From Thiomicrorhabdus sp. Kp2 (GTDB taxonomy: Bacteria; Pseudomonadota; Gammaproteobacteria; Thiomicrospirales; Thiomicrospiraceae): a stretch of DNA of 64,000 nucleotides. The position numbers were made by a program, and so were the translations under genes. Below the pieces are notes generated by a model. The model had not been told where the DNA came from. It worked only from the letters and a program-made list of their open reading frames with translations, and did not search any database. This document shows positions 2-62,179 of the stretch, one piece after another (within the stretch, counting starts at the first letter, position 1; each line of letters begins with the position of its first letter). The stretch lies in contig NZ_ARWI01000001.1 of NCBI RefSeq assembly GCF_000478585.1, forward strand, positions 1,674,001 to 1,738,000, in the 5' to 3' direction.

Positions 2-1351
2 TTACGTGATTATGAAGTACGTATTAAAGCTGGGTTTGATGAGATTAAATCGGTTGTACAACATTTAATTGTGCAGCAGAAACGTAACGATTTTGAGCAA
101 TGGGCTCAGCAGACAATTAAACAAAAACTGGGTATTACCCTAAGCCAAAAACAAGTTGAAGAGAGTCTTAGCCAGAAGTTCGATAGCAATGTTTTATATG
201 GCCAATGTGTTTTTAACCAGTTTATGTCAATGTCTAAGGAGTTTTTTGAACAAGATCCGTTACACGGTCAAAACAAATTACAGGCAGAGCGTCTTTTTAA
301 AGATGCGGGTTTTCACGCCGTCGGTGTTGCACCATGTGCCGATGGACGTTTAGCACACATTATTAGTTATGTATTACGGTTGCCTTATTCGGTAACCAGA
401 AGAAAAGCACATGCTGGAGCTCTGTTTGATGTGAGTGAAAGCGTACGTAACTGGGTCTTTATTGAACATAGCCGTTTTCGTGATGGCATACCAAATTCAA
501 GTGAAGAGCCAACAAAATATTTAAAAATTGCAGTGTATCACTACTCAAAATCAGATCCACACCACCAAGGTTGTGCGGCTCATGGTAGTGATGATGCCAA
601 AGCGGCAGAGGCAGCTTTAACGAAATTGAAAGATTTCCGCCAAGCAATCGAAAATCGTTTTGGATGCGGGTCAACCGTACAAACACTGCTTATTGGAATG
701 AATACGGATGACGATAGTCTGAAGATACACGTTCCAAACCAACAAGGGAAAGTGTGTTTAAAACGTTTTGTAGAAACGGATGCACTTTTCCAACAAACAA
801 CCAATATGAATTCTGAGCAAGCCAGAATCAAGATTGAACAAGCGGTAGAGCAATGTAACCCAGAGTTAGGCTCAACCGCACCAGTTGAATCGATGAATAA
901 ACTGATTGCTTGGTTCATTGAGAATAATTTTTCTCAGATTGCGTATGTACAAGAGTATGAAAACGGATGTTATTCAGACATTGGACACGCAGAAAGATTT
1001 ATCGGCATTGGTAACGGATTTGAAGAAGTACAGCTTCGTAACCTAACTTACTACAGCTATTTGGATACGGTTGAGGAAGGATTAAATGATGTCAATGTCG
1101 GGATTAAGATTTTTACCGGTCTTAATCTTAAAAATGGCTGGCCAATTCCCATCATTATCCGCTGTGATTATGACGGAAGAGTACCAGGTTCTAAAGACAG
1201 AGCTGAAGACAAAGCCAGACGAATTGAACAAGCGTTACACGATCGTTACACCGATTTATCGGCAAATGGTCAACTACAAACCCTTTGTACTTTAAGGGAT
1301 AACACCGGAAATCAACCAGCTGAGAAGTTACCAGGCCTGGTGATTCTGTAA
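2..1351 (+). CDS. csoSCA: Carboxysome carbonic anhydrase CsoSCA (5' end outside window)
   Basis: Epsilon-class carbonic anhydrase of the alpha-carboxysome, which dehydrates bicarbonate to CO2 for the enclosed Rubisco. The frame is open to the left edge, so the gene starts upstream; about 450 residues are present and the family is usually 500-550. The family's active-site signature is visible: CADGR near nt 335-349, then a His (nt 539-541) followed 11 residues later by a Cys (nt 572-574). This matches the Cys/His/Cys zinc ligands and Asp-Arg pair known from the Halothiobacillus enzyme. The last codons contain one of the ACCAGGCCTGGT palindromes. It is followed 16 nt later by csoS4A in the expected cso order. 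Identification is firm. Confidence 0.96.
   Translation, partial: LRDYEVRIKAGFDEIKSVVQHLIVQQKRNDFEQWAQQTIKQKLGITLSQKQVEESLSQKFDSNVLYGQCVFNQFMSMSKEFFEQDPLHGQNKLQAERLFKDAGFHAVGVAPCADGRLAHIISYVLRLPYSVTRRKAHAGALFDVSESVRNWVFIEHSRFRDGIPNSSEEPTKYLKIAVYHYSKSDPHHQGCAAHGSDDAKAAEAALTKLKDFRQAIENRFGCGSTVQTLLIGMNTDDDSLKIHVPNQQGKVCLKRFVETDALFQQTTNMNSEQARIKIEQAVEQCNPELGSTAPVESMNKLIAWFIENNFSQIAYVQEYENGCYSDIGHAERFIGIGNGFEEVQLRNLTYYSYLDTVEEGLNDVNVGIKIFTGLNLKNGWPIPIIIRCDYDGRVPGSKDRAEDKARRIEQALHDRYTDLSANGQLQTLCTLRDNTGNQPAEKLPGLVIL
1330..1341. repeat. Iterated palindrome ACCAGGCCTGGT, exact
   Basis: Exact copy in the 3' end of csoSCA, encoding Leu-Pro-Gly-Leu. See the finding on the palindrome family. Confidence 0.9.
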
Positions 1352-1367
1352 CAACAAGGAGGATTGG

Positions 1368-5617: not shown

Positions 5618-6232
5618 ATGACTACGATTGTTTTAGCCACAGCTAACCCAGATAAGGTTGAAGAACTGAGCACTCCTCTGCGTCTGAATGGTTTTAATAT
5701 AAAGCTACAAACTGACTTTTTTACTGAACAGGTAGTAGAAGATGGTTTGAGCTTTATTGAGAATGCCTTGAAAAAAGCGAGGTTTGCCAGTGCTAAAACA
5801 GGGTTGCCAGCCATTGCAGATGACTCAGGATTACAGGTGGATGCTCTAAATGGCAGGCCTGGTATCTTTTCGGCTCGTTTTGCTGAAACTCTCGGGCTTG
5901 GCGAAAGCTCTGAGGAGGAGAATACTCGCCAGCTCGTCAAGGCGCTTGAAGGTTTACCCTTACGAAATCGTAAAGCTAATTACATCTGTGTTGTTGTGTA
6001 TGTGGCACATGAAAACGATGAAACGCCTTTGATTGGTATTGGAGCATGGCATGGTGATATTCTTACAGAACCCAGAACTCAATATGGTATTGGCTACGAC
6101 CCAGTCATGTGGATTCCAAGTGAGTTAAAAGCGGCTTCTGAAGTGCCATTAGAGAGAAAATTAAAAATTAGTCACCGCGCTCAAGCAATGGAGTCGGTGA
6201 TTAAGCAAATCAAACAGCGGGAGGCTAAATGA
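5618..6232 (+). CDS. rdgB: HAM1/RdgB-type XTP/dITP pyrophosphatase
   Basis: Hydrolyses non-canonical purine nucleoside triphosphates to monophosphates. The family features are present: [10 protein letters not shown] at the N-terminus (phosphate-binding), [24 protein letters not shown], and a C-terminal ISHRAQAM. Length 204 aa is normal. It sits inside a CO2-concentrating block, between the PII-like gene and a BMC shell gene, and a HAM1 gene is a known neighbour of cso loci. It may be a dedicated paralogue, and the symbol is given for the family only. The stop overlaps the next start (ATGA). The GRPG codons carry a degenerate copy of the CAGGCCTG palindrome. Confidence 0.85.
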
Positions 6233-11707: not shown

Positions 11708-11722
11708 TAATCACTCTCTTGA

Positions 11723-11744
11723 AACTTACCAGGCCTGGTAAGTT
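11723..11744. repeat. Iterated palindrome, exact copy, extended to 22 bp
   Basis: ACCAGGCCTGGT at 11728-11739, extended by flanking symmetry to a perfect 22-bp palindrome. It fills most of the gap between kdsB and waaA and touches the first base of the kdsB stop region. It is the longest perfect version in the window. Confidence 0.9.
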
Positions 11745-15736: not shown

Positions 15737-17032
15737 TTAAAAGAAAACTCGTGCTCTGAATTCCAATTTTAAGTCCGTTAATTTTTCCGCAAATTCGCTA
15801 TTGTTAGAACCTTGAAATGTGGTGGCTCTAAAGCGTAGTTCGCTGTTTTTATAACCTGTATAAATCAGCTCAGGTGTGAGTAGGTAGCTACTGTCTTCTA
15901 AATTAGAAATTAGGGTTAAGGCGGAATTCAAATAGACGATATCGGCAAAATCTTTTTGGCTGGCTTTTATATACAGATAGTTTTGTCTTGAATTGCTTAA
16001 AGAGTAGCTGCCCTGTTTGGCTTGCTGCGCTAATTGATAATCCAATGGACTGGTATCAGGATCGCTTTTGGCGAGCGAATAAAAGTCGGTCATTTCATTG
16101 GTGCTATAACCTTGTGGATTATGTAGCCACTCTACAATCCAGGTGAGATCGGTGGTTGTTAAATAGCGAATTCCAACTAAACTTTGAAAGGTAGATTCGA
16201 TTGTGGATGCTAAGCTAGGCGTGTCAGTGATTTGTGTTTGAAAAACTTGATCACGGTATGCAAAGTCGCCATGCAGTTCAAAGTTAGTGGCTAAGTTGGT
16301 GGCAAAACTCATTCCATAATCGGTATTGGTTTCTGCGGAGTGGCGTAGATAGAAATCAATATCGGTGTCAGCGACTAATAGGTAAAGTTTTCCGCCAAAA
16401 AACAGGCTTTCAGTTGTATTGCTGGAAAAGTCTTCGTTTAGAGTGTCGGAAACGGGAATCGCAAAAAAGGCGGCAGAAACCGTTTTTACCAGGCCTGGTA
16501 AACTTTTAGTGTATTCACCACCCGCTAAAATAAAGCCTTCTCGGTTGATTTCAGGGTCATCAGGATTTTTAGCTCGTTCTAGAAATCCAACAGGATTCCA
16601 AGCGTATCCTTTACCCCATTTTATAGCACGTTTACCTAAATCAAATGACCATTGGTTGCTAGGTTGATAACGCCAAAAACCTTCTTGTAAGGTGTGCTCG
16701 GTGGTTTGAGTCAAAATATCATCTTGCCATAAAGACAAACTGCGAAAATTGAGTGAGCTTTTATCAAAACGGTATAAGCCGTTCAGTTCTAGTTCACTGT
16801 TATAGCGTTGAAAATCTTGTGGTTTTGCGGGCGGTTTAAATGCAAGATTGCTTAGGGCTGAATTTGGGTTAATATTGAGTTGCGTAGCCATTAGGTCAAA
16901 ATGGCCGTTAAACTCGTAAGGCTTCTTTTCATAGGCACTAACATTAAAGCTAAACTCTTCGGCATTGGCGAGATTAAATACCATTTGTAGAGTTACCAGG
17001 CCTGTTAAAACCGTTAATCGAACGGGTTTCAT
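15737..17032 (-). CDS. Predicted outer-membrane beta-barrel protein
   Basis: Secreted protein of 431 aa. It has a signal peptide (residues 1-24, cleavage after LANA), alternating polar/hydrophobic strands and a C-terminal aromatic residue (ARVFF), as in beta-barrels. I cannot name a family with certainty. It overlaps the LolA-like gene upstream by 4 nt and is the last gene of an operon with an ABC exporter. That suggests an envelope export or lipid-trafficking set in which this is the outer-membrane part. Two copies of the CAGGCCTG palindrome lie in the gene, one exact 12-mer. Confidence 0.65.
   Translation of the reverse strand: MKPVRLTVLTGLVTLQMVFNLANAEEFSFNVSAYEKKPYEFNGHFDLMATQLNINPNSALSNLAFKPPAKPQDFQRYNSELELNGLYRFDKSSLNFRSLSLWQDDILTQTTEHTLQEGFWRYQPSNQWSFDLGKRAIKWGKGYAWNPVGFLERAKNPDDPEINREGFILAGGEYTKSLPGLVKTVSAAFFAIPVSDTLNEDFSSNTTESLFFGGKLYLLVADTDIDFYLRHSAETNTDYGMSFATNLATNFELHGDFAYRDQVFQTQITDTPSLASTIESTFQSLVGIRYLTTTDLTWIVEWLHNPQGYSTNEMTDFYSLAKSDPDTSPLDYQLAQQAKQGSYSLSNSRQNYLYIKASQKDFADIVYLNSALTLISNLEDSSYLLTPELIYTGYKNSELRFRATTFQGSNNSEFAEKLTDLKLEFRARVFF
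16488..16499. repeat. Iterated palindrome ACCAGGCCTGGT, exact, extended to 18 bp
   Basis: Exact copy within the outer-membrane barrel gene, with symmetrical TTT...AAA flanks that make an 18-bp perfect palindrome. Confidence 0.9.
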
Positions 17033-17784
17033 TCTCTTAATTCACCAATTTTGGACATATAACCTAGTGTAAAGACTTCTTCATTAAATTCTCTTGGTTT
17101 AATGCCATCAAACAGCATGACGGATTTAAATCCTTTATATAAAGGGCTGTCGGTTTCTAGCATGGCGGGGCGAATATAACCATTGCCAAAATCTTTTATT
17201 TTGCTGTAATGCAGGGTTTTAATGAGCATGCCGCTGGCGGAATAGGCTTCAATTTTAATCGGTGTTTTGTGGTTTTTATCTACCCACATTTTAAGTTGGT
17301 CATAAGCAACCGAACGGTTTTTGGCTTTGAGTGTTAATAGATAGAGATCATTCTCTTCGGTGATGTTTTCAGCACTGTATTCGGTACTGTAGTCGAGCTG
17401 AAGAATGTCCGAATTATTAAAAACACCGCCCACCACGGACTGCAAGCTTGTGATGCGCAGTGGTTTGCCTACATTGGGAATATATAACCACATATTGTCG
17501 CCCACACGTAAACTGCTTCGGCCTCGTTCACTTGCAGGGTCTAAAAAGAGTGCCACTACATTTTCTTTGCCTTTTTTAACGGTATAGAGCACAAACTCTT
17601 TGCGGTCGCCATCGGGTTCAATATTAATGAGTTTTCGGTACATTTCGTAAGACTCAGGCTGTAAACGTGCATCCACTTCTTTTAATAACGAATTCGCCTC
17701 TAAGGTATCTGACCAGGCCTGGTGAGAAAAAAGTAAGCAGCTTAATATCAAAAGGTATCGCATTTGTTGCTGGAAACAATTCAT
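17029..17784 (-). CDS. LolA-like outer-membrane lipoprotein-sorting family protein
   Basis: Periplasmic protein of 251 aa (or 244 from the internal ATG at 17763) with a signal peptide ending near HQAWSDT. The pattern SSLRVGDNMWLYIPNVGKPLRI, KMWVDKNHKTPIKIEAYSASG and MLETDSPLYKG fits the LolA-like family often annotated as outer membrane lipoprotein-sorting protein. It is encoded next to a LolCDE-like ABC pair and an outer-membrane barrel, so it probably carries a hydrophobic cargo across the periplasm. It is not the housekeeping LolA. Confidence 0.75.
   Translation of the reverse strand: MNCFQQQMRYLLILSCLLFSHQAWSDTLEANSLLKEVDARLQPESYEMYRKLINIEPDGDRKEFVLYTVKKGKENVVALFLDPASERGRSSLRVGDNMWLYIPNVGKPLRITSLQSVVGGVFNNSDILQLDYSTEYSAENITEENDLYLLTLKAKNRSVAYDQLKMWVDKNHKTPIKIEAYSASGMLIKTLHYSKIKDFGNGYIRPAMLETDSPLYKGFKSVMLFDGIKPREFNEEVFTLGYMSKIGELRE
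17712..17723. repeat. Iterated palindrome ACCAGGCCTGGT, exact
   Basis: Exact copy near the signal peptide end of the LolA-like gene; on the minus strand it encodes Gln-Ala-Trp. Confidence 0.9.
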
Positions 17785-27684: not shown

Positions 27685-27725
27685 TAAAAAAGGCCTGCTA
27701 GAAAATGAATTCTAGCAGGCCTGGT
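27685..27725 (-). terminator. Intrinsic terminator of rpoH
   Basis: On the minus strand a perfect 13-bp stem (complement of 27710-27722 with 27691-27703) and a 6-nt loop are followed by TTTTTT. It lies 33 nt after the rpoH stop. The upstream arm contains a CAGGCCTG core, so the iterated palindrome overlaps the terminator. Confidence 0.9.
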
Positions 27726-34333: not shown

Positions 34334-34345
34334 ACCAGGCCTGGT
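34334..34345. repeat. Iterated palindrome ACCAGGCCTGGT, exact
   Basis: Exact intergenic copy 55 bp downstream of the IS3-family element and 56 bp before the yjdF-like start. Confidence 0.9.
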
Positions 34346-35015: not shown

Positions 35016-35031
35016 CGGTATTTAACTTTTA

Positions 35032-35141: not shown

Positions 35142-35146
35142 TTTTA

Positions 35147-35815: not shown

Positions 35816-35817
35816 TT

Positions 35818-36343: not shown

Positions 36344-36367
36344 ATAATTCATTTTTAAGAGAATTCT

Positions 36368-42442: not shown

Positions 42443-42445
42443 CGA

Positions 42446-45350: not shown

Positions 45351-45362
45351 ACCAGGCCTGGT
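45351..45362. repeat. Iterated palindrome ACCAGGCCTGGT, exact, extended to 14 bp
   Basis: Exact intergenic copy (A...T flanks give a 14-bp palindrome) between the tadG-like stop and the strong terminator. Confidence 0.9.
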
Positions 45363-45440: not shown

Positions 45441-46133
45441 TTAAATACGGTCTAACATACCTAAAATCACTTTGGCAGAGTGAGTGGCCGCTTGTTCTAG
45501 ATATTGTTCAAAGGTTTTGGCGTTCTCTTTGCCTGCAATATCCGAAAGAGAGCGGATAATCACAAACGGTTTGTTAAAGGTGTGACAAACTTGTGCCACC
45601 GAAGCCGCTTCCATTTCACAAGCAATCATTTCAGGGAAGTTATTGCGTGTATTGGTGACATCTTCTGGCTGATGCATAAAACGGTCACCCGTGGCAATTA
45701 AACCGTGCATATGAACCACTTCTTTTAATGCCTCAATGCTTTGTTGAGCAGCTTTAACTAGATTATCGTCAGGTAAAAAACAAGCTGGCAGGCCTGGTAC
45801 TTGACCTAAATCGTAACCAAAAGGCGTTACGTCAACATCGTGGTGGCACACAGAACTACTGATGACAATATCACCCACTTCTAAATCGGTGTGAAAACCG
45901 CCAGCAGAGCCTGTATTAATGACATAGTCTGGTTGGTAGGATTGCATTAAAAGCGCGGTGCTAATGGCCGCGTTAACTTTACCAATGCCTGAACGCAGTA
46001 ATACAATCTCTTTATCGCCAATATGGCCCATATAGTATTCAAAGCCTGCATGTACTTCAGTGGTTTGATTTTCAAGTTTACTGCGAAGTAACGAGACCTC
46101 TTCTTCCATTGCTCCAATAATAGCTATTTTCAT
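45441..46133 (-). CDS. mtnN: 5'-methylthioadenosine/S-adenosylhomocysteine nucleosidase
   Basis: Cleaves adenine from MTA and SAH; 230 aa, normal length. Features are IIGAMEEEVSLL at the start, the purine-binding INTGSAGGF and the substrate-binding CEMEAASVAQVCHTF, with the catalytic Asp in RSLSDIAG. Its product S-ribosylhomocysteine is the LuxS substrate, and luxS lies 9 nt upstream on the same strand, so the two recycle SAH to homocysteine and release DPD/AI-2. Confidence 0.95.
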   Translation of the reverse strand: MKIAIIGAMEEEVSLLRSKLENQTTEVHAGFEYYMGHIGDKEIVLLRSGIGKVNAAISTALLMQSYQPDYVINTGSAGGFHTDLEVGDIVISSSVCHHDVDVTPFGYDLGQVPGLPACFLPDDNLVKAAQQSIEALKEVVHMHGLIATGDRFMHQPEDVTNTRNNFPEMIACEMEAASVAQVCHTFNKPFVIIRSLSDIAGKENAKTFEQYLEQAATHSAKVILGMLDRI

Positions 46134-47345: not shown

Positions 47346-47357
47346 ACCAGGCCTGGT
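47346..47357. repeat. Iterated palindrome ACCAGGCCTGGT, exact
   Basis: Exact intergenic copy (T...A flanks give 14 bp) between the lipoprotein and metallopeptidase genes. Confidence 0.9.
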
Positions 47358-49416: not shown

Positions 49417-50864
49417 TATTTATCCTCCAGTTTCACAATCCAAGTATCTTTACTGCCACCACCTTGTGATGAGTTAACCACTAAAGAGCCCTTAACCATA
49501 GCAACACGGGTTAGACCGCCTGCGGTCACATAGCTCTCCTCTCCATGTAGTATGAACGGGCGAAGGTCAACATGACGGGGTTCGAGTCCGTTTTCACAAA
49601 TGGTTGGGGCTGTGGATAAATTAAGTGTGGGTTGCGCCACATAATTTCTTGGGTTTTCTTGAATAAGTTGGCTAAAGGTCTCTAGTTCCTCTTGAGTTGC
49701 TTTGGGGCCAATTAATAAACCATAGCCACCAGACTCATTGGCAGGTTTTACCACCAATTCATTAAGGTGTTCTAAAACATATTCACGGTCTTTTTCATTA
49801 CTGCATAGGTAGGTGGGTACATTGGAAATCAAAGGTTCTTCATTAAGGTAAAAACGAATAATATCGGGTACGTAGGCATACAGAACCTTGTCATCAGCCA
49901 CGCCACAGCCTGGGGCGTTTGCGATGCCTACATTGCCTTTTCGCCATGCACGCATTAAACCTGGTACCCCTAAAGCAGAATCTTCACGAAACACTTCGGG
50001 GTCAATAAAATCATCATCAATACGGCGATAAATCACATCGATTTTTTGTGGACCATCAACATTACGCATATAAACACAGTCGTCATCACCCACCATTAAA
50101 TCAGAACCCTCCACCAGTTCTACCCCCATTTCATGGGCTAAAAAGGCGTGTTCATAATAAGCAGAGTTAAAAATACCTGGCGTTAAAACCACAATTTCAG
50201 GGTCTTCGGAATCAGTCGGGGAGATTGAACGCAACATTTTTAGCAGTTCATAAGGGTATTGGTTCATGGGTTGAATGTTAATATCTTGAAACGCCTCAGG
50301 CATGGCTGTTTTAGAGACATAACGATTTTCAAGCATATACGACACCCCTGAAGGCACACGAAGATTATCTTCTAATACATAAAACTCACCCGCATCATCA
50401 CGCACTAAGTCGGTACCACAAATACATGCCCAGGCCTGGTGTTTCAGCTTCATGCCTTTGCTTTCAGGTCTAAAATCCTTAGACGATAGGATGATTTCGG
50501 CAGGCACAATGCCTTTATTTAAGATATTTTGATCGTTGTAGATATCTTCAATAAATAGATTTAACGCTCTTAAACGCTGTTTCAACCCACTTGCAACCTG
50601 CTCCCATTCAGAGGCTTCAATGGTTCTTGGAATTAAGTCAAAAGGCCAAAGTCGGTCAATGTTTCCCTTATCACTGTAAACGGTAAAAGAGATTCCCATT
50701 TGGGCGATGGTTTTTTCAGCCGCTTTTTGGCGTTCTGTGAGCTCTTCAAAGCCCAGATTGGTTAGATGTTGAAAAAGCTCAACAGAAGCTGCGCGTGGTT
50801 TTTCATTGGCGTCTATCGATTCATCATAGAAGCCGTTATTAGGGTATTTGTTTTGTATTTGCAT
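49416..50864 (-). CDS. Circularly permuted ATP-grasp protein
   Basis: Protein of 482 aa from the ATG at 50864, which has a GAGG site 7 nt before it; an ATG at 50930 would add 22 residues without a ribosome site. Family stretches are RPFDLIPRTIEASEWEQVASGLKQR, DLVRDDAGEFYVLEDNLRVPSGVSYMLENR (split here), VVKPANESGGYGLLIG (nucleotide-binding) and HVDLRPFILHGE. It is part of the alpha-E neighbourhood, predicted to ligate amino acids or peptides with ATP. Known members are uncharacterised. Confidence 0.9.
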   Translation of the reverse strand: MQIQNKYPNNGFYDESIDANEKPRAASVELFQHLTNLGFEELTERQKAAEKTIAQMGISFTVYSDKGNIDRLWPFDLIPRTIEASEWEQVASGLKQRLRALNLFIEDIYNDQNILNKGIVPAEIILSSKDFRPESKGMKLKHQAWACICGTDLVRDDAGEFYVLEDNLRVPSGVSYMLENRYVSKTAMPEAFQDINIQPMNQYPYELLKMLRSISPTDSEDPEIVVLTPGIFNSAYYEHAFLAHEMGVELVEGSDLMVGDDDCVYMRNVDGPQKIDVIYRRIDDDFIDPEVFREDSALGVPGLMRAWRKGNVGIANAPGCGVADDKVLYAYVPDIIRFYLNEEPLISNVPTYLCSNEKDREYVLEHLNELVVKPANESGGYGLLIGPKATQEELETFSQLIQENPRNYVAQPTLNLSTAPTICENGLEPRHVDLRPFILHGEESYVTAGGLTRVAMVKGSLVVNSSQGGGSKDTWIVKLEDK

Positions 50865-51327: not shown

Positions 51328-52170
51328 ATGAGAAAGTTGTTATTTACCGATTTAGACGGTTCCTTATTAGACCATCACGATTATGACTACTCACCTGCGT
51401 TACCCGCCATAAACGCTTTGCAAACTCAACACGTTCCTTGGGTTTTGACTACCAGTAAAACGGCAGAAGAGGTGATTGATATTCGTAATGAATTACATAA
51501 CAAATACCCTTTTATTGTTGAAAATGGCGCAGGTATTTTTTGGCCTAAAGGGAGTATGCAGTTTACAGAGGTTTTTCGCAAAGATTGGTTGCAAAACATC
51601 GAAATTTCGCAATGGAAAGAGAGTTATGACTACATTAGTCTAAACTCGGTTTTAATGTCAGAGATGTTGACTTTGGCTCAGGCTATGAGAAAAAAGTTTC
51701 ATTTTATTTGTACTGGCTTTTCTGAAATGAGTGTGCAACAGGTTTCTGATTGTACAGGCTTGAGCTTAGAGCAAGCGGCAAAGGCCAAGCAGCGTCACTT
51801 TTCTGAACCTCTGCTTTGGCAAGATACCGAAGAGCGTTTACAGCAGTTTATGGCTCTTTTGAAACCTTATGGTTTGCAACTCATAAAAGGTGGGCGATTT
51901 GTGCATCTAATGGGGTTGAGTAATAAGGGTTTGGCACTACGATTTTTAACAGATTATTATCACCAGGCCTGGCAAGAACCGATTGAGACCATGGCCTTGG
52001 GTGATGGTAATAACGATATTCCTTTATTAGAGGCGAGTGATTACCCCGTTGTGATTCGCTCTCCCGTTAATCCGCCACCCGTGGTGGAGCACGATAGGGT
52101 CATTGTGACCAAAGAGTATGGGCCTAAAGGCTGGAATCAAGCCGTTTTAAATTGGTTAGAAACGGCTTGA
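51328..52170 (+). CDS. Glucosyl-/mannosyl-3-phosphoglycerate phosphatase (HAD)
   Basis: HAD-superfamily phosphatase of 280 aa of the mannosyl-3-phosphoglycerate phosphatase family. Motif I LLFTDLDGSLLD (nucleophile Asp), IVENGAGIFWPKG, and motif IV GDGNNDIPLLEASD are present. Next to GpgS it should dephosphorylate glucosyl-3-phosphoglycerate to glucosylglycerate, a compatible solute. First gene of the operon behind the sigma-54 promoter. A CAGGCCTG copy at 51962 encodes His-Gln-Ala-Trp. Confidence 0.87.
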   Translation: MRKLLFTDLDGSLLDHHDYDYSPALPAINALQTQHVPWVLTTSKTAEEVIDIRNELHNKYPFIVENGAGIFWPKGSMQFTEVFRKDWLQNIEISQWKESYDYISLNSVLMSEMLTLAQAMRKKFHFICTGFSEMSVQQVSDCTGLSLEQAAKAKQRHFSEPLLWQDTEERLQQFMALLKPYGLQLIKGGRFVHLMGLSNKGLALRFLTDYYHQAWQEPIETMALGDGNNDIPLLEASDYPVVIRSPVNPPPVVEHDRVIVTKEYGPKGWNQAVLNWLETA

Positions 52171-53475: not shown

Positions 53476-55236
53476 ATGCCAATGTCATCATGTCCATCTG
53501 CGGTCGCTTACTCTGCACTGATTGAGCGAATTACTCCATTAGTGCAGGCGCTCTATCCCGATCAAGATACGGCTGAATTGGCAGAGAAGTTTATCGAGAT
53601 AACTGGCATTGATAAAACATCTTGCCAGTTACCTATGTCGCACCAGTCACATTGGGATGAGCAAGATATTATGCTCATTACTTATGGCGATTCTATTCTT
53701 AAGAGTGGCGAAAAACCCCTGAAAACCTTAAAAAACACTTTAGACACTTACTTAAAAGAGAGTGTCTCAATGGTGCATATTTTGCCCTATTACCCTTATA
53801 CCTCTGATGGTGGTTTTGCGGTATCGGATTATGAATCCATTAACCCTGATTTAGGGTCTTGGTCTGATATCACAGAGATTAGCCAAGACTATAAAATCAT
53901 GGCAGACTTAGTGATTAACCACTGTTCAAGTGAACACCCCTGGTTTAAGGCTTTTGAGGCGGGTGATCCAAAGTATGAAAACTATTTTGTGCAAGCCAGT
54001 CCAACCGAAGATTTATCAGCGGTGGTTCGCCCACGTACGACTCCTTTATTGAGAATTACCCATACCACCGAGGGTGAAAAATACGTTTGGTGTACCTTTA
54101 GTCACGATCAGATTGATTTAAATTTCGCTAACCCAGATGTGTTTTTAGAGGTCATGCGTTTGATTTCTATGTACATCGATAAAGGTGCAAGTATTTTTAG
54201 ATTAGATGCCATTGGCTTTTTATGGAAAATTATTGGCACATCTTGTATTCACCTGCCTGAAACTCATCAAGCGATTCAATTAATGCGTGCTTTAATTGAG
54301 TACCGTTTGCCTGAGGCGATTATTATCACAGAAACTAATGTGCCTAAACGTGAAAACCTCACCTATTTTGGTAATGCCAATGAAGCGCACATGGTTTATA
54401 ACTTCTCCTTGCCACCGCTATTAATTAATGCCTTACTTACTGGTTCAGCCAAACATTTAAAATCTTGGTTAATGACTATGCCGCCTGCGCAAATGGGCAC
54501 CACTTTTTTAAACTTTATTGCCAGTCATGATGGTATTGGTGTCAGGCCTGCCGAGGGGATTCTTGATCCAGAAGAGCTGCAAAATATGATTCATGCCTTA
54601 CAATCGTTTGGTGCAAGAGTCTCTTGGCGTGCGGGTTTAAACGGTGAAAAACACCCGTATGAGATTAATATTGCTTTAATTGATGCCTTTAAGGGCACGG
54701 CTGATGGTGTGGATGAGTATCAGGTAGAACGTATGTTATGCGCTCATGCGATTGCCATCGCTTTGGAAGGTGTTCCAGCGATTTATGTGCATTCTTTCTT
54801 TGCCACTGAAAATGATTATGACATGTTAGAAAAAACAGAGCATAATCGTGATATAAATCGTCATAAATGGCAGTTTGATGAGTTGCAGCCTTTGCTTGAG
54901 GATTCCAACACCTTAAATTCCCGTGTTTTAAGTGGTTTAAGTCGTTTGATTCATTTACGTAAACAGCATGCGGCTTTCCATCCAAATGCCACGCAATTCA
55001 CTTTGCATTTACCTGATGAGCTGTTTGGTTTCTGGCGACAAAGTTTGATGCGTCATCAAAGTATTTTTGTGATTAATAATGTCACGAATCGGTCACAAAC
55101 ATTAAGTTTGGCACAATTAAACTTAATAGATATGGATGAGTGGAAAGAGATTATTAGCGACCAAATGATTACCGATTTATATGGTGAAATGACGTTAGCC
55201 CCCTATCAAACGGTTTGGATTACCAACCGTTTTTAA
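53476..55236 (+). CDS. GH13_18 sugar phosphorylase (glucosylglycerate or sucrose phosphorylase)
   Basis: Glycoside phosphorylase of 586 aa. GH13 catalytic residues are present: nucleophile Asp in IFRLDAIGFLWK (near residue 240), acid/base Glu in ITETNVP, and the transition-state Asp in FIASHDGIGVRPAEG. Sequence type is the sucrose phosphorylase subfamily, which includes glucosylglycerate phosphorylase. Placement 14 nt after gpgS favours glucosylglycerate as substrate, releasing glucose-1-phosphate and glycerate. Sucrose phosphorolysis remains possible because sucrose genes lie downstream. Confidence 0.86.
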   Translation: MPMSSCPSAVAYSALIERITPLVQALYPDQDTAELAEKFIEITGIDKTSCQLPMSHQSHWDEQDIMLITYGDSILKSGEKPLKTLKNTLDTYLKESVSMVHILPYYPYTSDGGFAVSDYESINPDLGSWSDITEISQDYKIMADLVINHCSSEHPWFKAFEAGDPKYENYFVQASPTEDLSAVVRPRTTPLLRITHTTEGEKYVWCTFSHDQIDLNFANPDVFLEVMRLISMYIDKGASIFRLDAIGFLWKIIGTSCIHLPETHQAIQLMRALIEYRLPEAIIITETNVPKRENLTYFGNANEAHMVYNFSLPPLLINALLTGSAKHLKSWLMTMPPAQMGTTFLNFIASHDGIGVRPAEGILDPEELQNMIHALQSFGARVSWRAGLNGEKHPYEINIALIDAFKGTADGVDEYQVERMLCAHAIAIALEGVPAIYVHSFFATENDYDMLEKTEHNRDINRHKWQFDELQPLLEDSNTLNSRVLSGLSRLIHLRKQHAAFHPNATQFTLHLPDELFGFWRQSLMRHQSIFVINNVTNRSQTLSLAQLNLIDMDEWKEIISDQMITDLYGEMTLAPYQTVWITNRF

Positions 55237-55271: not shown

Positions 55272-56729
55272 ATGTCAGCTGCAGATATTGGTTTAATTGG
55301 CCTTGCCGTGATGGGACAAAACTTGGTTTTGAATATGGCGGAGCATGGCTTTCATGTTTGTGTGTATAACCGCTCAGAGCAAAAAACCAATGAGTTTATT
55401 GAAAAGCGTGCACAAGGTTTTCCAATTAGCGCGGCTTATTCCTTAAAAGAGTTAGTGGATTCTCTTGCGGCGCCTCGAAAAGTCATGTTAATGGTTAAAG
55501 CGGGTGACGTGGTTGACGCGTTTATTGAACAGCTCGTCCCGTTATTGGATGAAGGCGATATTATCATTGATGGTGGTAACTCTTTATACATCGATTCAAA
55601 CCGTAGAACCAAAGCCCTAGCCGAAAAAGGTATTTTATTTATTGGTACGGGGGTTTCTGGGGGCGAAGAGGGTGCGCGTTTTGGACCATCCATTATGCCA
55701 GGCGGAAATAACCAGGCCTGGGAAAGTGTCAAACCCATCTTTCAAGCGATTGCGGCTAAATCAGGTAACGAGGCTTGTTGTGATTGGGTGGGGGATGATG
55801 GTGCTGGTCACTATGTGAAAATGGTCCACAATGGGATTGAATATGGTGACATGCAGCTTATTTCAGAAGCTTATCAGCTAATGCGCGAAGGTTTGGGTAT
55901 GAGTGCAGATGAATGCCAAGCCGTCTTTGCTGATTGGAATAAAGGGGTTTTAGACTCTTATTTAATTGAAATTACCGCAGAAATCTTAACTTTTAAAGAT
56001 AAAGATGGTGAGCCGTTAGTCGATAAAATTTTAGATGCCGCAGGCCAAAAAGGTACTGGTAAATGGACTGGAATTAGCTCATTAGAGTTAGGGATCCCTG
56101 TGACCTTGATTACCGAATCGGTTTACGCACGTTGTTTATCGGCCTTAAAAACAGAACGTGTACAGGCCTCTAAAATTTACCCAAGAACGGTCGCCACAAA
56201 AACCTATTCATCAGAAGAAAAACAAGCCATTATCGCTTCAATTCACGATGCGCTTTATGCTTCAAAAATTATCTCTTACGCCCAAGGCTACATGTTAATG
56301 GCTGAAGCGGCTAAAGCCTATAGTTGGGACTTAAATTACGGTGGCATTGCGCTTATGTGGCGTGGTGGTTGCATTATTAGAAGCCGTTTTTTAGAAGAGA
56401 TTAAACACGCTTATGAAAAACAACCAGGCCTGGCAAACTTACTGCAAGCCCCCTTCTTTGAAAACGCAATTAAAGCCGCTGAAAGCCATTGGCGAAAAGC
56501 GGTGGTGTTTGGTATTGAACAGCAAATCCCAACCCCAACTTTAAGCTCGGCCTTAGCGTTTTTTGATGGTTACCGCAGTGAGGTTGTGCCTGCTAATTTA
56601 TTGCAAGCACAGCGTGATTATTTTGGTGCTCATACTTACGAGCGTGTAGATGCTCCACGTGGAGAGTTTTTTCATACCGACTGGATTCAATCTGGCGGTA
56701 ATGTTAGCTCTACAACGTATGAGGTTTAA
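55272..56729 (+). CDS. gnd: 6-phosphogluconate dehydrogenase, decarboxylating
   Basis: NADP-linked enzyme of the oxidative pentose phosphate pathway, 485 aa from the ATG at 55272, which has an AAGGAAGAG site; the frame is open further upstream into the phosphorylase gene but without family match. Features are [21 protein letters not shown] (Rossmann), [21 protein letters not shown] and [19 protein letters not shown]. The reverse order gnd-zwf-pgl follows. Two palindrome copies lie inside. Confidence 0.95.
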
Positions 56730-56731: not shown

Positions 56732-58216
56732 ATGGTTGAACCTTGTACATATGTGGTATTTGGTGCAACTGGGAATTTATCTCTTACCAAATTAATGCCT
56801 GCTTTTTACCACTTAGAATGCGTGGGTCGTTTGCCAGATGGTATGCGTATTGTGGCAATTGGTCGCAGAGAGTGGCGTCTTGAAGATTTATTGACTGAAA
56901 TTAAAAAGTACATTGAACCTGTTGCCCGTGGAGGTATTAATCATGCTATTTTTAAAGCTTTTGCCTCGCGTATGGACTACGTGCAAATGGATATTTCGAG
57001 TGCTGAATGTTATAAAAATTTAGCAACAACGTTAGCAGAGCCAAAATTTTCTTCCAAAATGGCTTTTTATTTATCGCTAGGGCCAGATATGTTTGGCCAA
57101 GTAACCCATGAACTTAAAGAGCATGGTTTATTAGATGAATCGAATGGTTGGAAACGTGTGGTTCTTGAAAAGCCGTTTGGGTATGACGTAGAAAGTGCTG
57201 CGGCACTGCAAAATAAAATCAGTAAAGCGTTATCTGAAGAGCAGACTTACCGTATTGACCATTATCTTGGCAAAGGTATGGTGCAAAATGTGATGGTTTT
57301 TCGTTTTGCCAATGCACTGATGGAACCCTTATGGAACCGAAATACCATTGACCATATTCAGATAACCCATGCCGAAGACAAATGTGTGGGAACTCGTGCT
57401 GGTTATTACGACCATAGTGGTGCTTTGCGTGACATGATTCAAAGTCATCTTTTACAGCTATTGGCGTTGGTTGCGATGGAGCCTCCTGCCTCTATGGATG
57501 CCGAATCTTTGCGTGATGAAAAGGTAAAGCTGCTTAAATCGATTCGCCCTATTAAAAAGAAACAGGTCAAAGGTCAAGCGTATCGTGCTCAATATGCCGA
57601 GGGTATTATTCATGGCAACCAAGTGCACAGCTATTTAGATGAGCCTGGTGTGGCCGAAGATTCGGTCACCGAGACCTATGCGGCTTTAAAACTCTATATT
57701 GATAATTGGCGTTGGGAAGGTGTGCCTTTCTACATTCAGACGGGTAAAAACATGAAGCAGTCTAAAACCTTGGTTTCAATCTGTTTTAAACATCCGCCTA
57801 AACAATTCTTCCGTGATTCACAGGTTAAAAAAATGGAGCCTAACTGGATTGTGTTTGGTATTCAGCCGAATGAGTCTATTAAAATCGAGATGATTGCCAA
57901 ACAACCAGGCCTGGAAATTAATACCGAACAGATTAGTTTGGATGCGGCCATGAAATACGATGAAAATTCAAAAATCGATGCCTATGAAGAACTGTTATTA
58001 GATGTTATTAAAGGCGATAGGTCACTGTTCTTACGTTTTGATGAAGTCAAAGCGGCTTGGGATGTGGTTGATCCCGTTTTGTCTGAGTGGGCAAATCAAA
58101 CGGATTATATTGATACGTACGCATCAGGCAGTTGGGGGCCTGAAGGTTCACATAAACTGTTTGATGATAACGAACAATATTGGCGTACCTATATTAATCC
58201 ACACTGTAAAGAGTAG
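56732..58216 (+). CDS. zwf: Glucose-6-phosphate dehydrogenase
   Basis: First enzyme of the oxidative pentose phosphate and Entner-Doudoroff pathways, 494 aa. Nucleotide-binding [20 protein letters not shown] (GxxGxL), active-site [21 protein letters not shown] and EKPFGYD are clear. It starts 2 nt after the gnd stop. Produces NADPH, which in an autotroph is likely to draw on stored sugar. Confidence 0.95.
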
Positions 58217-59114: not shown

Positions 59115-61319
59115 ATGAACGAACAGCAAACTGATGTGTATATCTCTCTTATTAGTGTTCACGGCCTTTTCCGTGGTAATAATCTCGAATTAGGTAGAGA
59201 CGCGGATACAGGAGGCCAAACTCTCTATGTTTTAGAGCTCGCTCAGGCTCTATCAGAAAGACCCGAAGTGGGTAAAGTAGAGCTTTTTACGCGTTTAGTA
59301 AAAGATAGCTCTGTTGATGCAGACTACGCCCAACCCATTGAAAAAATAAACGATAAACTCTCAATTATTAGAATCGAAGCGGGTCCAGAAGAGTATATAT
59401 TCAAAGAGCAGTTGTGGGATTATCTGGATACGTTTGCTGATAATATGATGGACTATTTTCGGCATCAAAATCATTACCCCGATATTATTCACAGCCACTA
59501 TGCCGACGCAGGTTATGTGGGAAGCCAGTTAGCCAATCAATTATCTATTCCGCTTATTCATACGGGGCATTCATTAGGGCGCGTTAAGCGTGCTAGACTG
59601 TTTGCCAATGGTGTGCCGTCCGAAGAGATTGAAAGCCAGTACAATATGTCCAGGCGTATTGATGCCGAAGAGCATGTATTGGCTACCGCAGAAAGGGTGA
59701 TTACCAGCACTCATCAAGAGATTGAAGAGCAGTATGAAATTTATGATTTCTATCAACCAGAGCAAATGCGGGTTATTCCTCCAGGAACAAATTTAGCCCA
59801 ATTTCAGCCACCATATGGCGATGAGTTAACCTCAAAACTTTATCAACAATTAACCTACTCTTTGGTTGATTCGCAAAAACCAATTATTTTGGCTTTATCA
59901 AGACCCGACCCTCGCAAAAATATTGCCGCTTTAATTGAGGCTTATGGTCAATCGCCCGAGCTACAACAACAAGCCAATTTATTGATTATTGCAGGTAACC
60001 GCGATGATGTAGAAGATTTGGAGTCAGGAGCGCAACAGGTCTTTCATGAAATCTGGGCGATGATTGACCGTTATGATTTATATGGCAAGGTCTCTTTGCC
60101 AAAACATCATAGTCGTAATGATGTCGCCTTTATTTATCGCATTGCGGCAGCGTCAGGGGGTGTGTTTGTTAACCCCGCCTTAACAGAACCGTTTGGTTTA
60201 ACTTTAATTGAAGCGACTGCATCTGGTTTGCCTATTGTTGCAACAGAAGATGGTGGGCCAAGAGATATTATAGAGAATTGCCAGAATGGCATTCTTATTG
60301 ACCCATTAGAACCACGAACAATTACCCAGGCATTGCTTGAGCTTTTTAAACAGCCTGAAAAGAAAAATCAAATGATTAAACATGGGTTAAGCGGTGTAGA
60401 GCAACACTATGCATGGAAAGCTCACGCAGAACGTTATTTGAATTTGATATGCCCAATTGTTAAAAATTCTGAACGGTTACCAAGAACACCGATTTCAAGA
60501 CGATCAGCTCTTTATAAAGACCGTGCCTTAGTCACCAGTCTTGACCATAACCTTGTTGGAAACCCTGAAGCGTTAACTAAACTCATTGCCGTGTTAAAAG
60601 AGCACCGTAAATCAACCCTATTTATTGTTGCAACTAACAGAAGGCTTGATTCCGCTTTACGTTTACTTAAACACTACAAATTGCCTGAACCTGATACTTT
60701 AATCACCAGTTCGGGAACCGAGATTTACTATGCCCCTAAACTCAATAAAGACAAATATTGGGCTAAACACATCGATTTTCACTGGGTTAGGTATAAAATT
60801 AAAGACCTGCTAGATGAACATCCAGGCCTGTATTTACAGCCAAAATCAGAGCAAGCCCCATTTAAGATTAGTTATTACCTTAATAAGGACATTACCGATC
60901 TTGACCACATCAATGGCATACTTCATCAAGAGGATGAATCGGCAAATGTTCAGCTCTCTTTTGATAAATACCTAGATATTCTGCCTATGCGAGCTTCCAA
61001 AGGAATGGCATTGCGTTATGTGGCTGACCGTTGGCAAATACCTTTAGAAAAAATACTGGTTGCAGGTGGTTCTGGTGCGGATGAAGATATGATGCGTGGT
61101 AATACTCTTGCCGTGGTAGTGGCTAACCGTCATAAGGAAGATCTCTCACAGTTGCAAGAGTTTGAGCGAATCTATTTTGCCCAGAAAAGTTATGAAGAAG
61201 GCATTTTAGAAGCGATTGAACACTATGATTTTTTTGGTAAATGTCGTCCGCCTGAAATGGAAGAAAAAGCCGAAGCTGAAAATAGTCATGCATCAGGACG
61301 CGAGCGGGAAAACGGATGA
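59115..61319 (+). CDS. sps: Sucrose-phosphate synthase with inactive C-terminal phosphatase domain
   Basis: GT4 glycosyltransferase of about 734 aa from the ATG at 59115; a TTG at 59073 is the alternative. It makes sucrose-6-phosphate from NDP-glucose and fructose-6-phosphate. Features are GRDADTGGQTLYVLELAQAL, IHSHYADAGYVG, LSRPDPRKNIAALIEAYG and NPALTEPFGLTLIEATASGLP. A C-terminal HAD-type phosphatase-like domain (residues about 480-715) keeps the motif IV region GGSGADEDMMRG, but the motif I reads TSLDHNL where the catalytic Asp of DLDNT is expected. It is therefore probably not a phosphatase. spp follows with an ATGA overlap. Confidence 0.9.
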   Translation: MNEQQTDVYISLISVHGLFRGNNLELGRDADTGGQTLYVLELAQALSERPEVGKVELFTRLVKDSSVDADYAQPIEKINDKLSIIRIEAGPEEYIFKEQLWDYLDTFADNMMDYFRHQNHYPDIIHSHYADAGYVGSQLANQLSIPLIHTGHSLGRVKRARLFANGVPSEEIESQYNMSRRIDAEEHVLATAERVITSTHQEIEEQYEIYDFYQPEQMRVIPPGTNLAQFQPPYGDELTSKLYQQLTYSLVDSQKPIILALSRPDPRKNIAALIEAYGQSPELQQQANLLIIAGNRDDVEDLESGAQQVFHEIWAMIDRYDLYGKVSLPKHHSRNDVAFIYRIAAASGGVFVNPALTEPFGLTLIEATASGLPIVATEDGGPRDIIENCQNGILIDPLEPRTITQALLELFKQPEKKNQMIKHGLSGVEQHYAWKAHAERYLNLICPIVKNSERLPRTPISRRSALYKDRALVTSLDHNLVGNPEALTKLIAVLKEHRKSTLFIVATNRRLDSALRLLKHYKLPEPDTLITSSGTEIYYAPKLNKDKYWAKHIDFHWVRYKIKDLLDEHPGLYLQPKSEQAPFKISYYLNKDITDLDHINGILHQEDESANVQLSFDKYLDILPMRASKGMALRYVADRWQIPLEKILVAGGSGADEDMMRGNTLAVVVANRHKEDLSQLQEFERIYFAQKSYEEGILEAIEHYDFFGKCRPPEMEEKAEAENSHASGRERENG

Positions 61320-62179
61320 GACTGCTTCTTTGTACCGATATGGATCGCACGGTGATACCCAATGGTATGCAAAAGGAAACGAGCGGTGCGCGAGAAAGAT
61401 TTGCCGATTTTTGTGGTTTGCCAACAGTGAATTTGGTTTATGTAACAGGGCGTCATCTGGCATTAATGCAGCAAGCCGTTCAAGAATATCAGTTGCCTTT
61501 AGCAGACTATGCAATCACCGATGTAGGTACACGTATTTACCAGCAAAAAGAGCAGCTGTGGCATCCTATAACCGCATGGGAAAAAGAGATTGATCAAGAT
61601 TGGCGTGGGGTTGAGCCAAAACAAATCTATGATTTACTCGACTCGATACCAGGCCTGGCAAAACAAGAATCTGAAAAACAGAACGCCCATAAAATCAGTT
61701 TTTATATTGACCTACAAAAGCTTGCCGAGCAAGACTGTTTGGCTAAAGTAAATGAACGTCTAGCACCTTTAAAAATTCAAACCAATTTGATTTGGAGTAT
61801 TGATGAAACCACTCATACTGGTTTGCTAGATATTTTGCCGCCCAAAGCCAATAAACTGCACGCCATTGAGTTTTTACAGCAATACTTAGGTTATCAAAAC
61901 CAAGAGGTGGTTTTTGCTGGAGACAGTGGCAATGACCTTGAAGTATTAATCAGTCCAATTCAGTCCGTTTTGGTGGCGAATGCAACGCCTGAGCTAAAAA
62001 AACAAGCATTAGAACTGGTTGAAAAACGTGGTACTGGAAAACAGTTTTTTCAAGCTATAAACGCCAATAATGACAATGGAAATTACAGTTCAGGTGTCTT
62101 GCAAGGCGTGATGCACTATCTTCCTAGGTTCAAACGACACATTCATGCTTTAGGGATTAAATATGAATCAATCAACTGA
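61316..62179 (+). CDS. spp: Sucrose-6-phosphate phosphatase
   Basis: HAD-family phosphatase of 287 aa that converts sucrose-6-phosphate to sucrose. Motif I LLCTDMDRTVIPNG is intact (DxD), motif II LVYVTGRHL, and motif IV FAGDSGNDLEVL is present. The start overlaps the sps stop, and the 3' end overlaps the fructokinase gene by 17 nt. The complete motif I contrasts with the degraded one in the SPS C-terminal domain, so this gene supplies the activity. Confidence 0.92.
   Translation: MRLLLCTDMDRTVIPNGMQKETSGARERFADFCGLPTVNLVYVTGRHLALMQQAVQEYQLPLADYAITDVGTRIYQQKEQLWHPITAWEKEIDQDWRGVEPKQIYDLLDSIPGLAKQESEKQNAHKISFYIDLQKLAEQDCLAKVNERLAPLKIQTNLIWSIDETTHTGLLDILPPKANKLHAIEFLQQYLGYQNQEVVFAGDSGNDLEVLISPIQSVLVANATPELKKQALELVEKRGTGKQFFQAINANNDNGNYSSGVLQGVMHYLPRFKRHIHALGIKYESIN

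What the first reader, a model, noticed from the sequence alone, without database searches (positions are those of the whole stretch)
1330..61659. A highly iterated palindrome, ACCAGGCCTGGT, scattered through the whole window
By hand I count 11 exact 12-mers (1330, 11728, 16488, 17712, 22342, 24287, 25970, 34334, 43787, 45351, 47346). At least nine more have one mismatch (16995, 17933, 29779, 50429, 51962, 55711, 56423, 57904, 61648). The 8-bp core CAGGCCTG occurs about 31 times. Uniform expectation in 64 kb is about 0.004 for the 12-mer and about 1 for the 8-mer. Nearly every AGGCCT in the window is flanked by C and G, so the whole palindrome is selected or copied, not just a restriction site. 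It lies in genes on both strands in at least three reading frames (Gln-Ala-Trp, Pro/Thr-Gly-Leu, Arg-Pro-Gly) and in gaps, so protein sequence does not explain it. It resembles cyanobacterial HIP1 in behaviour but not in sequence. It could be a binding site for a nucleoid, segregation or repair protein, a methylation target, an uptake-like signal, or a self-spreading repeat.
Basis: seen in the sequence. Interest (0 to 1): 0.78.

Follow-up and report, generated by a model that had tools for sequence, protein, structure and literature searches.

The report
Possible DNA self-recognition tag, many dialects
A short DNA word repeated about a thousand times in this sulfur-oxidising bacterium, written in different 'dialects' by its relatives, looks like the tags that some bacteria use to recognise and take up DNA of their own kind, but uptake itself has not been tested here.

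Summary
The window has 11 exact ACCAGGCCTGGT and 31 CAGGCCTG; the genome (2.73 Mb) has 557 and 1133. It is a family trait: 32 of 62 family genomes carry 236-1173 CAGGCCTG, the other 30 carry 0-74; in 365 sampled genomes of the class outside the family the 12-mer count is at most 5. Six of the 30 carry related motifs instead, among them ACCGGCCGGT and the non-palindromic AAAATCTRCCAGGYTGGG. The palindrome thus looks like one dialect of motifs built from a half-site with an A-tract, used singly or as a dyad. Nine of 16 records carry a motif in one orthologous spacer, each in its own dialect. In the own genome the core is almost never singly mismatched. Twelve of 38 motif-bearing genomes match none of three DNA methyltransferase families, which weighs against a HIP1/methylase explanation. 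Best explanation: a DNA uptake (self-recognition) sequence of natural transformation, as in Neisseriaceae and Pasteurellaceae. Uptake, receptor and drive are inferred; no receptor was found, and several genomes without a found motif keep ComEC.

The parts
1330..1341 (.). exact ACCAGGCCTGGT
11728..11739 (.). exact ACCAGGCCTGGT; in the spacer 11708-11742 that carries the record's own dialect in 9 of 16 records compared
16488..16499 (.). exact ACCAGGCCTGGT
17712..17723 (.). exact ACCAGGCCTGGT
22342..22353 (.). exact ACCAGGCCTGGT
24287..24298 (.). exact ACCAGGCCTGGT
25970..25981 (.). exact ACCAGGCCTGGT
34334..34345 (.). exact ACCAGGCCTGGT
43787..43798 (.). exact ACCAGGCCTGGT
45351..45362 (.). exact ACCAGGCCTGGT
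47346..47357 (.). exact ACCAGGCCTGGT
16995..17006 (.). 12-mer with one outer mismatch
17933..17944 (.). 12-mer with one outer mismatch
27714..27725 (.).
29779..29790 (.). 12-mer with one outer mismatch
50429..50440 (.). 12-mer with one outer mismatch
51962..51973 (.). 12-mer with one outer mismatch
55711..55722 (.). 12-mer with one outer mismatch
56423..56434 (.). 12-mer with one outer mismatch
57904..57915 (.). 12-mer with one outer mismatch
61648..61659 (.). 12-mer with one outer mismatch
5854..5861 (.). CAGGCCTG core only
20978..20985 (.). CAGGCCTG core only
21823..21830 (.). CAGGCCTG core only
25233..25240 (.). CAGGCCTG core only
25860..25867 (.). CAGGCCTG core only
30220..30227 (.). CAGGCCTG core only
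34782..34789 (.). CAGGCCTG core only
45789..45796 (.). CAGGCCTG core only
54543..54550 (.). CAGGCCTG core only
60823..60830 (.). CAGGCCTG core only

Best explanation
The repeats are DNA uptake (self-recognition) sequences of natural transformation, a third set beside the Neisseriaceae DUS and the Pasteurellaceae USS. SHOWN here: hundreds to over a thousand copies per genome; one dominant motif in each genome in which one was found; the 12-mer not enriched in the sampled class outside the family; an exact core with graded A-tract flanks; clade-wise dialects that include asymmetric forms; presence in genes (all three phases) and, in the own genome, about four times denser in spacers; dialects sitting at one orthologous place. 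INFERRED: a surface DNA receptor of the transformation machinery, probably a pilin and probably a dimer where the motif is a dyad, binds DNA with the local motif; such DNA is taken up and recombined preferentially; matching sites spread and mutated ones are overwritten by intact copies from neighbours. When the receptor's specificity changes, the genome drifts to a new dialect.
For: (1) Copy number: 557 12-mers and 1133 cores in 2.73 Mb, about one core per 2.4 kb. (2) 32 of 62 family genomes have 236-1173 cores, the other 30 have 0-74; in 365 genomes of the class outside the family the 12-mer count is at most 5. (3) Six of those 30 carry another dialect: CTRCCAGGYTGGG 314, 331 and 376 copies in G007, G008, G013 and 0-1 in the other 59; ACMGGCCGGK 1058/1059 by strand in G027, 311/312 in G023, 174/193 in G036, at most 37 a strand elsewhere. 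(4) Architecture: own logo AA.TTACCAGGCCTGGTAA.TT; G061 tAAaatTgACCAGGCCTGGTcAattTTa; G027 aaa.tttACCGGCCGGTaaa.ttt; T. cannonii/DE12 one-sided A-tract + AACAGGCCGGGT (8 and 5 sites); G008/G013 AAAATCTRCCAGGTTGGG, A-tract on one side only (12 and 8 sites). AT-rich tracts and dialects with a kept inner core are USS/DUS traits (PMC12616744 introduction; PMC1626085 passages); a dyad DUS arrangement is reported for Simonsiella and Kingella (PMC3630211 section 11). (5) Exact core: own 12-mer perfect 100, single mismatches 1 at the eight core positions and 64 at the four outer ones (464 kb). Redfield et al. call an excess of perfect over singly mismatched copies a USS/DUS peculiarity unlike regulatory sites. 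(6) One orthologous spacer holds a motif in 9 of 16 records compared, in each record's own dialect. (7) Spacers: 75 of 227 sites in 11.4% of the DNA; divergent spacers poorest. (8) ComEC in 36 of 38 motif-bearing genomes.
Against: No uptake experiment and no receptor: in one pilin-like locus (12 genomes) the pilins diverge fast but show no dialect signal beyond kinship. ComEC does not separate the groups: 36 of 38 with motif, 20 of 24 without known motif (Fisher P 0.19); of seven genomes sampled without finding a motif, six have ComEC. Strictness is not uniform: core single mismatches 6 against 10 perfect in G053 and 6 against 39 in G027; where it is high it exceeds that reported for DUS, where singly mutated copies outnumber perfect ones: a 17-bp motif has 17 perfect and 3 singly mismatched copies in about 182 kb. 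Density is lower than the roughly one per kb of USS/DUS. Host-like motif density also occurs in a stretch of a probable temperate phage (L272, 4 cores in 8.3 kb, 0.09 expected); neutral, but not predicted. The A-tract is weak or absent in G052 and G053. Other competence genes were not searched.
Confidence: 0.6

Rival explanations
1. HIP-type element: a DNA methyltransferase recognises the core, and methylation-linked mismatch repair or selection builds and keeps the sites (Elhai 2015), with alternate HIPs when the methylase is exchanged.
For: Octameric, GC-rich, strict core with mismatches mostly at the edges, switching of motif between relatives: all as in HIP1 and alternate HIPs (PMC4390886: abstract, parts of results and discussion). 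The own genome has a PF00145, a PF01555 (in two pieces of one frame) and a PF02086 match.
Against: 12 of 38 motif-bearing genomes (11 of them at least 99% complete) have no match to any of the three families; 26 of 38 with motif and 17 of 24 without known motif have at least one (against 24, 46, 57; Fisher P 1.0). Asymmetric dialects do not fit a palindromic site. Type I, IIG and other methylase families were not searched.
Confidence: 0.15
2. Binding site of a chromosome-structure, segregation or recombination protein (nucleoid protein, Chi- or KOPS-like) needed along the whole chromosome.
For: Slightly even spread: gap CV 0.89 against 0.97 for random placing (P 0.07) and 13 gaps under 200 bp against 20.5 expected; conservation, 4 of 4 aligned sites kept in Milos-T2 and 4 of 4 in WV30 at 78-79% identity.
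Against: Near-absence in congeners, and dialect changes at hundreds of sites, are hard for a protein with a housekeeping duty. The asymmetric dialect shows no clear polar arms: plus/minus 136/178, 149/182, 181/195; 64 of 149 plus sites of G008 lie in the first 42% of the chromosome and 64 of 136 of G007 in the first 41% of its main contig (listing cut). Binding sites of regulators normally show many near-matches.
Confidence: 0.12
3. A transcription terminator or regulatory element spread by selection in spacers.
For: About fourfold denser in spacers, poorest in divergent ones; 18 of 30 asymmetric sites in spacers.
Against: 152 of 227 own sites lie inside called genes in all three phases; no conserved T-run in the logo; genome-wide dialects unexplained.
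Confidence: 0.05
4. An as yet unknown exact-match-only maintenance process (self-spreading or self-correcting code) unrelated to uptake.
For: Almost total lack of singly mismatched cores in several genomes, stricter than reported for DUS.
Against: No candidate gene; G053 and G027 do show singly mismatched cores; most other features are met by the uptake model.
Confidence: 0.08

Closest known systems
Pasteurellaceae uptake signal sequence (USS, Hin and Apl types)
   Same: Many copies, perfect copies exceed singly mismatched, core plus AT-rich tracts, copies in coding sequence, subclade-specific types with a kept inner core (PMC1626085 passages; PMC12616744 introduction).
   Different: Unrelated sequence; here mostly palindromic with A-tracts on both sides; lower density; more dialects in one family; no uptake data.
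Neisseriaceae DNA uptake sequence (DUS) dialects, incl. Simonsiella/Kingella dyads
   Same: Family-wide dialects around a fixed inner core; overlapping dyad DUS (1294 in S. muelleri) suggesting dimer recognition; permissive spacers (PMC3630211 section 11; PMC12616744 introduction).
   Different: DUS have no flanking motifs and have more singly mutated than perfect copies; ComP is known there, no receptor here.
Cyanobacterial HIP1 and alternate HIPs
   Same: Strict GC-rich octameric palindrome, extended by graded edges, lost or exchanged in relatives (PMC4390886).
   Different: Asymmetric dialects and A-tracts; no consistent methylase of three families.
Caldithrix abyssi palindrome / REP sequences
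   Same: Dispersed short palindrome (PMC5317091 passages).
   Different: 38 exact copies, mostly outside real genes; here about 1000 copies, two thirds inside called genes.

Membership tests
DNA uptake sequences (DUS/USS) | Hundreds to thousands of copies of one short motif per genome | tested here: met
DNA uptake sequences (DUS/USS) | Strong consensus: perfect copies exceed singly mismatched ones | tested here: met
   own genome: 227 perfect cores, 94 singly mismatched, about 117 expected. Not so in G053 (12-mer 10 perfect, 31 singly mismatched, 6 of these in the core)
DNA uptake sequences (DUS/USS) | Present in coding DNA and enriched in spacers | tested here: met
DNA uptake sequences (DUS/USS) | Clade-wise dialects with a conserved inner core | tested here: inconclusive
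   dialects and clades. Inner CAGG or GGCC is shared by most, but no one core by all (ACCGGCCGGT lacks CAGG, CCAGGTTGGG lacks GGCC)
DNA uptake sequences (DUS/USS) | AT-rich tract near the core (USS only) | tested here: met
   weak or absent in G052, G053
DNA uptake sequences (DUS/USS) | Competence machinery | tested here: inconclusive
   ComEC in 36 of 38 motif-bearing and 20 of 24 other genomes; other genes not searched
DNA uptake sequences (DUS/USS) | Cognate minor pilin receptor (ComP, ComN) | tested here: inconclusive
   pilins found, no candidate singled out
DNA uptake sequences (DUS/USS) | Preferential uptake of motif-bearing DNA | not testable with these tools
   needs transformation experiments
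Highly iterated palindromes (HIP) | Palindromic GC-rich octamer at high frequency | tested here: met
   for the own species; not so in G007, G008, G013 or T. cannonii/DE12
Highly iterated palindromes (HIP) | A methyltransferase for the sequence in every bearing genome | tested here: not met
   three families searched, none in 12 of 38 bearing genomes; other families not searched
Chi/KOPS-type polar motif | Orientation skew by replication arm | tested here: inconclusive
   a palindrome has no polarity; asymmetric dialect plus/minus 136/178, 149/182, 181/195, listed plus sites roughly evenly placed (listing cut)

The most novel reading that the evidence does not exclude
The motif is kept by a process that in several species tolerates almost no mismatch in the core and that can switch a whole genome between dimeric (palindromic) and monomeric (asymmetric) forms of one half-site: a new kind of genome-wide self-recognition code in free-living chemolithoautotrophs, either an uptake system with a dimer-reading receptor and a stronger drive than in Haemophilus or Neisseria, or an exact-match maintenance mechanism not yet described.
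Probability: 0.3. Interest if true: 0.9.

Novelty: new variant of a known kind. Interest (0 to 1): 0.74.

Why it matters
[quoted passage not shown] A third family, of sulfur-oxidising autotrophs, with at least six dialects including dyad and single-site forms and with relatives in which no motif was found, would be an independent replicate for the old question of how uptake sequences and their receptors evolve, and a way to find receptors by co-variation. It would also suggest testing some 'highly iterated palindromes' as uptake signals.

Tried and rejected
Methylase link: three family scans, no association. FimT-like receptor: PF12019 found in 3 of 62 genomes, none with a known motif; the one locus I read (L250) looks by recall of its proteins like a type II secretion operon; L248 and L249 were not read. 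ComEC as discriminator: P 0.19. Pilin locus comparison in 12 genomes: pilins differ by kinship as much as by dialect; not used as evidence. Phages: a scan for TACCAGGCCTGGTA gave 36 viral stretches with one such site each. Gapped A-tract motif scan: it recovered the known asymmetric dialects but no convincing new motif in G025, G029, G030, G031, G042, G050, G051 (40-100 kb each), T. heinhorstiae (22 kb; no row passed) or three MAG loci; G031 has 3 ACCGGCCGGT in 100 kb against 0.05 expected, perhaps relics; G030 AAAAGCC and G042 ACCGTCTG signals judged weak or unlike. Literature: uptake sequence + Hydrogenovibrio 0 papers; natural transformation + Thiomicrospira 6, incidental by title and abstract start; a six-term search 204 papers, of which the 40 listed include none holding both an uptake-sequence term and a taxon term, 164 not seen; the octamer as a string 848 papers, the 30 listed not about it by title. 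Other searches. No paper was read whole.
Full report
OBSERVATION. The window holds 11 exact ACCAGGCCTGGT and 10 copies with one mismatch (shuffled mean 0.06) and 31 CAGGCCTG (shuffled mean 0.53). CAGGCCTG is the most frequent 8-mer of the window and 31 of 38 AGGCCT lie in it. The window is bases 1,674,001-1,738,000 of a single-contig genome of 2,725,706 bp with 557 exact 12-mers and none of the reversed control, and 1133 cores.

ORGANISM. Window genes include carboxysome shell carbonic anhydrase, OvoA, sucrose-phosphate synthase and a TadA-family ATPase. The nearest named relative by SpoT is Thiomicrorhabdus sp. Milos-T2 (89% identity). The organism is thus a Thiomicrorhabdus-like sulfur oxidiser; its own name is not shown.

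ANATOMY IN THE OWN GENOME. In 464 kb (17% of the genome: twenty 20-kb stretches plus the window) there are 227 cores. Their symmetrised logo reads AA.TTACCAGGCCTGGTAA.TT: C at -5 in 75% and A at -6 in 76%, then A/T-rich positions at -7, -8, -10 and -11, little beyond about -12. Single-mismatch versions of the core are not enriched: 94 observed, about 117 expected by an order-2 Markov model (12 strand-paired variants). Within the 12-mer, 100 copies are perfect; single mismatches by position are 8, 19 | 0,0,0,0,0,1,0,0 | 15, 22, that is 1 in the eight core positions and 64 in the four outer ones (chance expectation 0.8 and 0.4). 152 sites lie in called genes, in phases 44/99/9 with many different peptides, and 75 in spacers that make up 11.4% of the DNA; spacer density is lowest between divergent genes (8 sites in 12.7 kb, against 48 in 29.1 kb tandem and 15 in 8.2 kb convergent, 4 at stretch edges). 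Gene calls there are simple longest-ORF calls. Spacing is near random, slightly even (CV 0.89 against 0.97, P 0.07).

DISTRIBUTION. Over 62 genomes of the family, core counts fall in two groups: 32 genomes with 236-1173 and 30 with 0-74 (reversed controls 0-36). The 12-mer itself ranges from 0 to 718; some core-rich genomes have few 12-mers (G024 900 and 16; G047 859 and 25) because their flanks differ. In a sample of 369 genomes of the class, 4 are of this family; among the other 365 the 12-mer count is at most 5. The other dialects were not searched outside the family.

PHAGES. A scan of viral contigs for TACCAGGCCTGGTA gave 36 stretches with one such site each. Counting cores in the 328 kb held: 51 in all, 30 stretches with one, three with two, and three with four or more. 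L272 has 4 in 8.3 kb (0.09 expected), GC 41%, A/T-rich flanks, and proteins matching CII-like and O-like replication families: probably a temperate phage, host unknown, at about the host's motif density. L256 and L281 have 7 and 4, but GC 58-59% and other flanks. So at least one phage seems to carry the motif; this fits several models.

DIALECTS. Sampling 40-100 kb from each of 18 relatives and scanning 20 named loci (L021-L040) gave these forms: ACCAGGCCTGGT (own, Milos-T2, WV30, T. arctica, G006, G061, WB1, H. halophilus); CCAGGCCTGG with other outer bases (G015); mixed C or G at -5 with weak or no A-tract (G052, G053); ACAGGCCTGT-like (G024 10 of 43, G047 9 of 44, ZW0627) and GCAGGCCTGC-like (ZodW 5 of 7, zzn3 2 of 13); ACCGGCCGGT with A-tracts on both sides (G027, 39 in 100 kb); AACAGGCCGGGT with a long A-tract on one side (T. 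cannonii, DE12); AAAATCTRCCAGGTTGGG (G008, G013, JE_KL2) and AAAATCTRCCAGGCTGGG (G007), A-tract on one side only. Genome counts: CTRCCAGGYTGGG 314 in G007, 331 in G008, 376 in G013, 0-1 in the other 59 genomes. ACMGGCCGGK by strand: G027 1058/1059, G023 311/312, G036 174/193, at most 37 elsewhere, mostly near the reversed control but about twice it in G025, G029 and G046. That G023 and G036 have the T. cannonii form is inferred from this count. So at least 38 of 62 genomes carry a motif. Of the other 24, seven were sampled (40-100 kb) and gave no convincing motif; 17 were judged by these pattern counts only. Dialects follow clades on a SpoT tree, e.g. cannonii with DE12, and own, Milos-T2 and WV30 together (9 of 19 inner branches well supported).

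THE SHARED UNIT. Read together, the forms suggest one half-site, an A-tract, a few bases, then RCCAGG, AACAGG or ACCGG, used once (asymmetric) or twice head to head (palindrome). This is a reading of the logos, not a statistical model; no single core is shared by every dialect.

ORTHOLOGOUS PLACES. In the spacer at window 11708-11742 (by recall of the protein sequences, between waaA/kdtA-like and kdsB-like genes) 16 records could be compared (own and 15 of 18 loci tried): 9 carry a motif there, each in its own dialect (own, WV30, arctica and WB1 ACCAGGCCTGGT; Milos-T2 ACAGGCCTGGT; zzn3 GAGCAGGCCTGCTC; ZW0627 GACAGGCCTGTTC; cannonii and DE12 AACAGGCCGGGT); 7 do not, among them the motif-bearing SC-1, CG07, H. 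halophilus and JE_KL2. Of own sites aligned, 4 of 4 are kept in Milos-T2 and 4 of 4 in WV30 (78-79% identity); over arctica, zzn3, ZW0627, heinhorstiae, cannonii and ZodW 2 of 13 are kept, and 2 more (at 11730) face a motif that is gapped or in another dialect. Sites present in only one of two species differ by substitutions, with one single-base gap near a site (few cases).

METHYLASES. PF00145 is found in 24 of 62 genomes, PF01555 in 24, PF02086 in 10 (E at most 0.001, a few below the curated cut-off). At least one is present in 26 of 38 motif-bearing and 17 of 24 other genomes (Fisher P 1.0). None is present in G006, G007, G022, G024, G026, G027, G046, G048, G049, G058, G060 and G061, all motif-bearing. 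Elhai reports a matching methylase in every HIP genome (PMC4390886, part of the discussion read). Type I, IIG and other families were not searched, so the methylase rival is weakened, not excluded.

COMPETENCE. ComEC (PF03772) is found in 56 of 62; 36 of 38 with motif, 20 of 24 others (P 0.19); one 99%-complete genome without known motif (G050) has none, and motif-bearing G023 has an open frame of 594 aa only. This does not discriminate. Pilins are present in all 12 genomes searched. A pilin-like locus, often beside miaB- and ybeZ/ybeY-like genes (names by recall), exists in the 12 regions read, but its proteins diverge with kinship and no receptor is proposed.

STRICTNESS ELSEWHERE. Perfect against core single mismatches: G061 17 and 0, G006 24 and 2, G015 28 and 3, G027 39 and 6, G053 10 and 6. 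The asymmetric 17-bp word of G008, G013 and JE_KL2: 17 perfect, 3 singly mismatched. Strictness is thus high in most but not all.

COMPARISON WITH THE KNOWN. [quoted passage not shown] DUS have dialects with an inner core, dyad pairs in Simonsiella (1294) and Kingella suggesting dimer recognition, and permissive spacers, but more singly mutated than perfect copies (PMC3630211, section 11); the two papers differ on DUS strictness. Bakkali finds overrepresentation falling with mismatch load for both (PMC1939737, passages). Helsem et al. write that only Neisseriaceae and Pasteurellaceae are known to discriminate DNA this way (PMC12616744, introduction). The present motifs match DUS/USS in number, strictness, dialects, placing and (mostly) A-tracts, and differ in palindromy and density. 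How a 17-bp word is kept so exact is left unexplained.

VERDICT. Works like an uptake sequence: likely (0.6, unchanged after the recount; the phage finding fits several models). Membership is not claimed, since uptake bias and a receptor, the functional definition, could not be tested. HIP membership fails on the methylase criterion as far as tested.

Noticed in passing
window 34782-43788: The longest stretch without CAGGCCTG (9.0 kb) in the own DNA scanned (464 kb plus L289 and L301) covers secretin and TadA-family genes, as would be expected if the locus was acquired from outside.
   Followed up: partly
L272 (8269 bases of IMGVR_UViG_3300005470_000015): A probable temperate phage (CII-like, O-like replication protein, exonuclease families) with 4 CAGGCCTG in 8.3 kb and host-like flanks; may infect a member of this family.
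   Followed up: partly
L256, L281: Two viral stretches of GC 58-59% share CAGGCCTG sites (7 and 4) without A-tract flanks.
   Followed up: no
window, three copies of GGTTACGTAACC: A second 12-bp palindrome occurs 3 times, expected 0.002-0.005.
   Followed up: no
L024, L025, L027: These Thiomicrorhabdus MAG loci hold repeated C8 words (11 in L024+L025, 14 in L027, overlaps counted) and no CAGGCCTG.
   Followed up: no
L221-L225 (G051), L216-L220 (G008): Repeats: about 96 copies of words such as AAGGCAGCTA in 100 kb of G051, and 17-34 copies of several 10-base words in 100 kb of G008.
   Followed up: no
L289-L300: A pilin-like locus with large prepilins, several bearing LPCPDTDGDG-type motifs, often with a response regulator and histidine kinase and often beside a miaB-like gene.
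   Followed up: partly
G050: A 99%-complete genome of the same genus without a ComEC match and without known motif.
   Followed up: no
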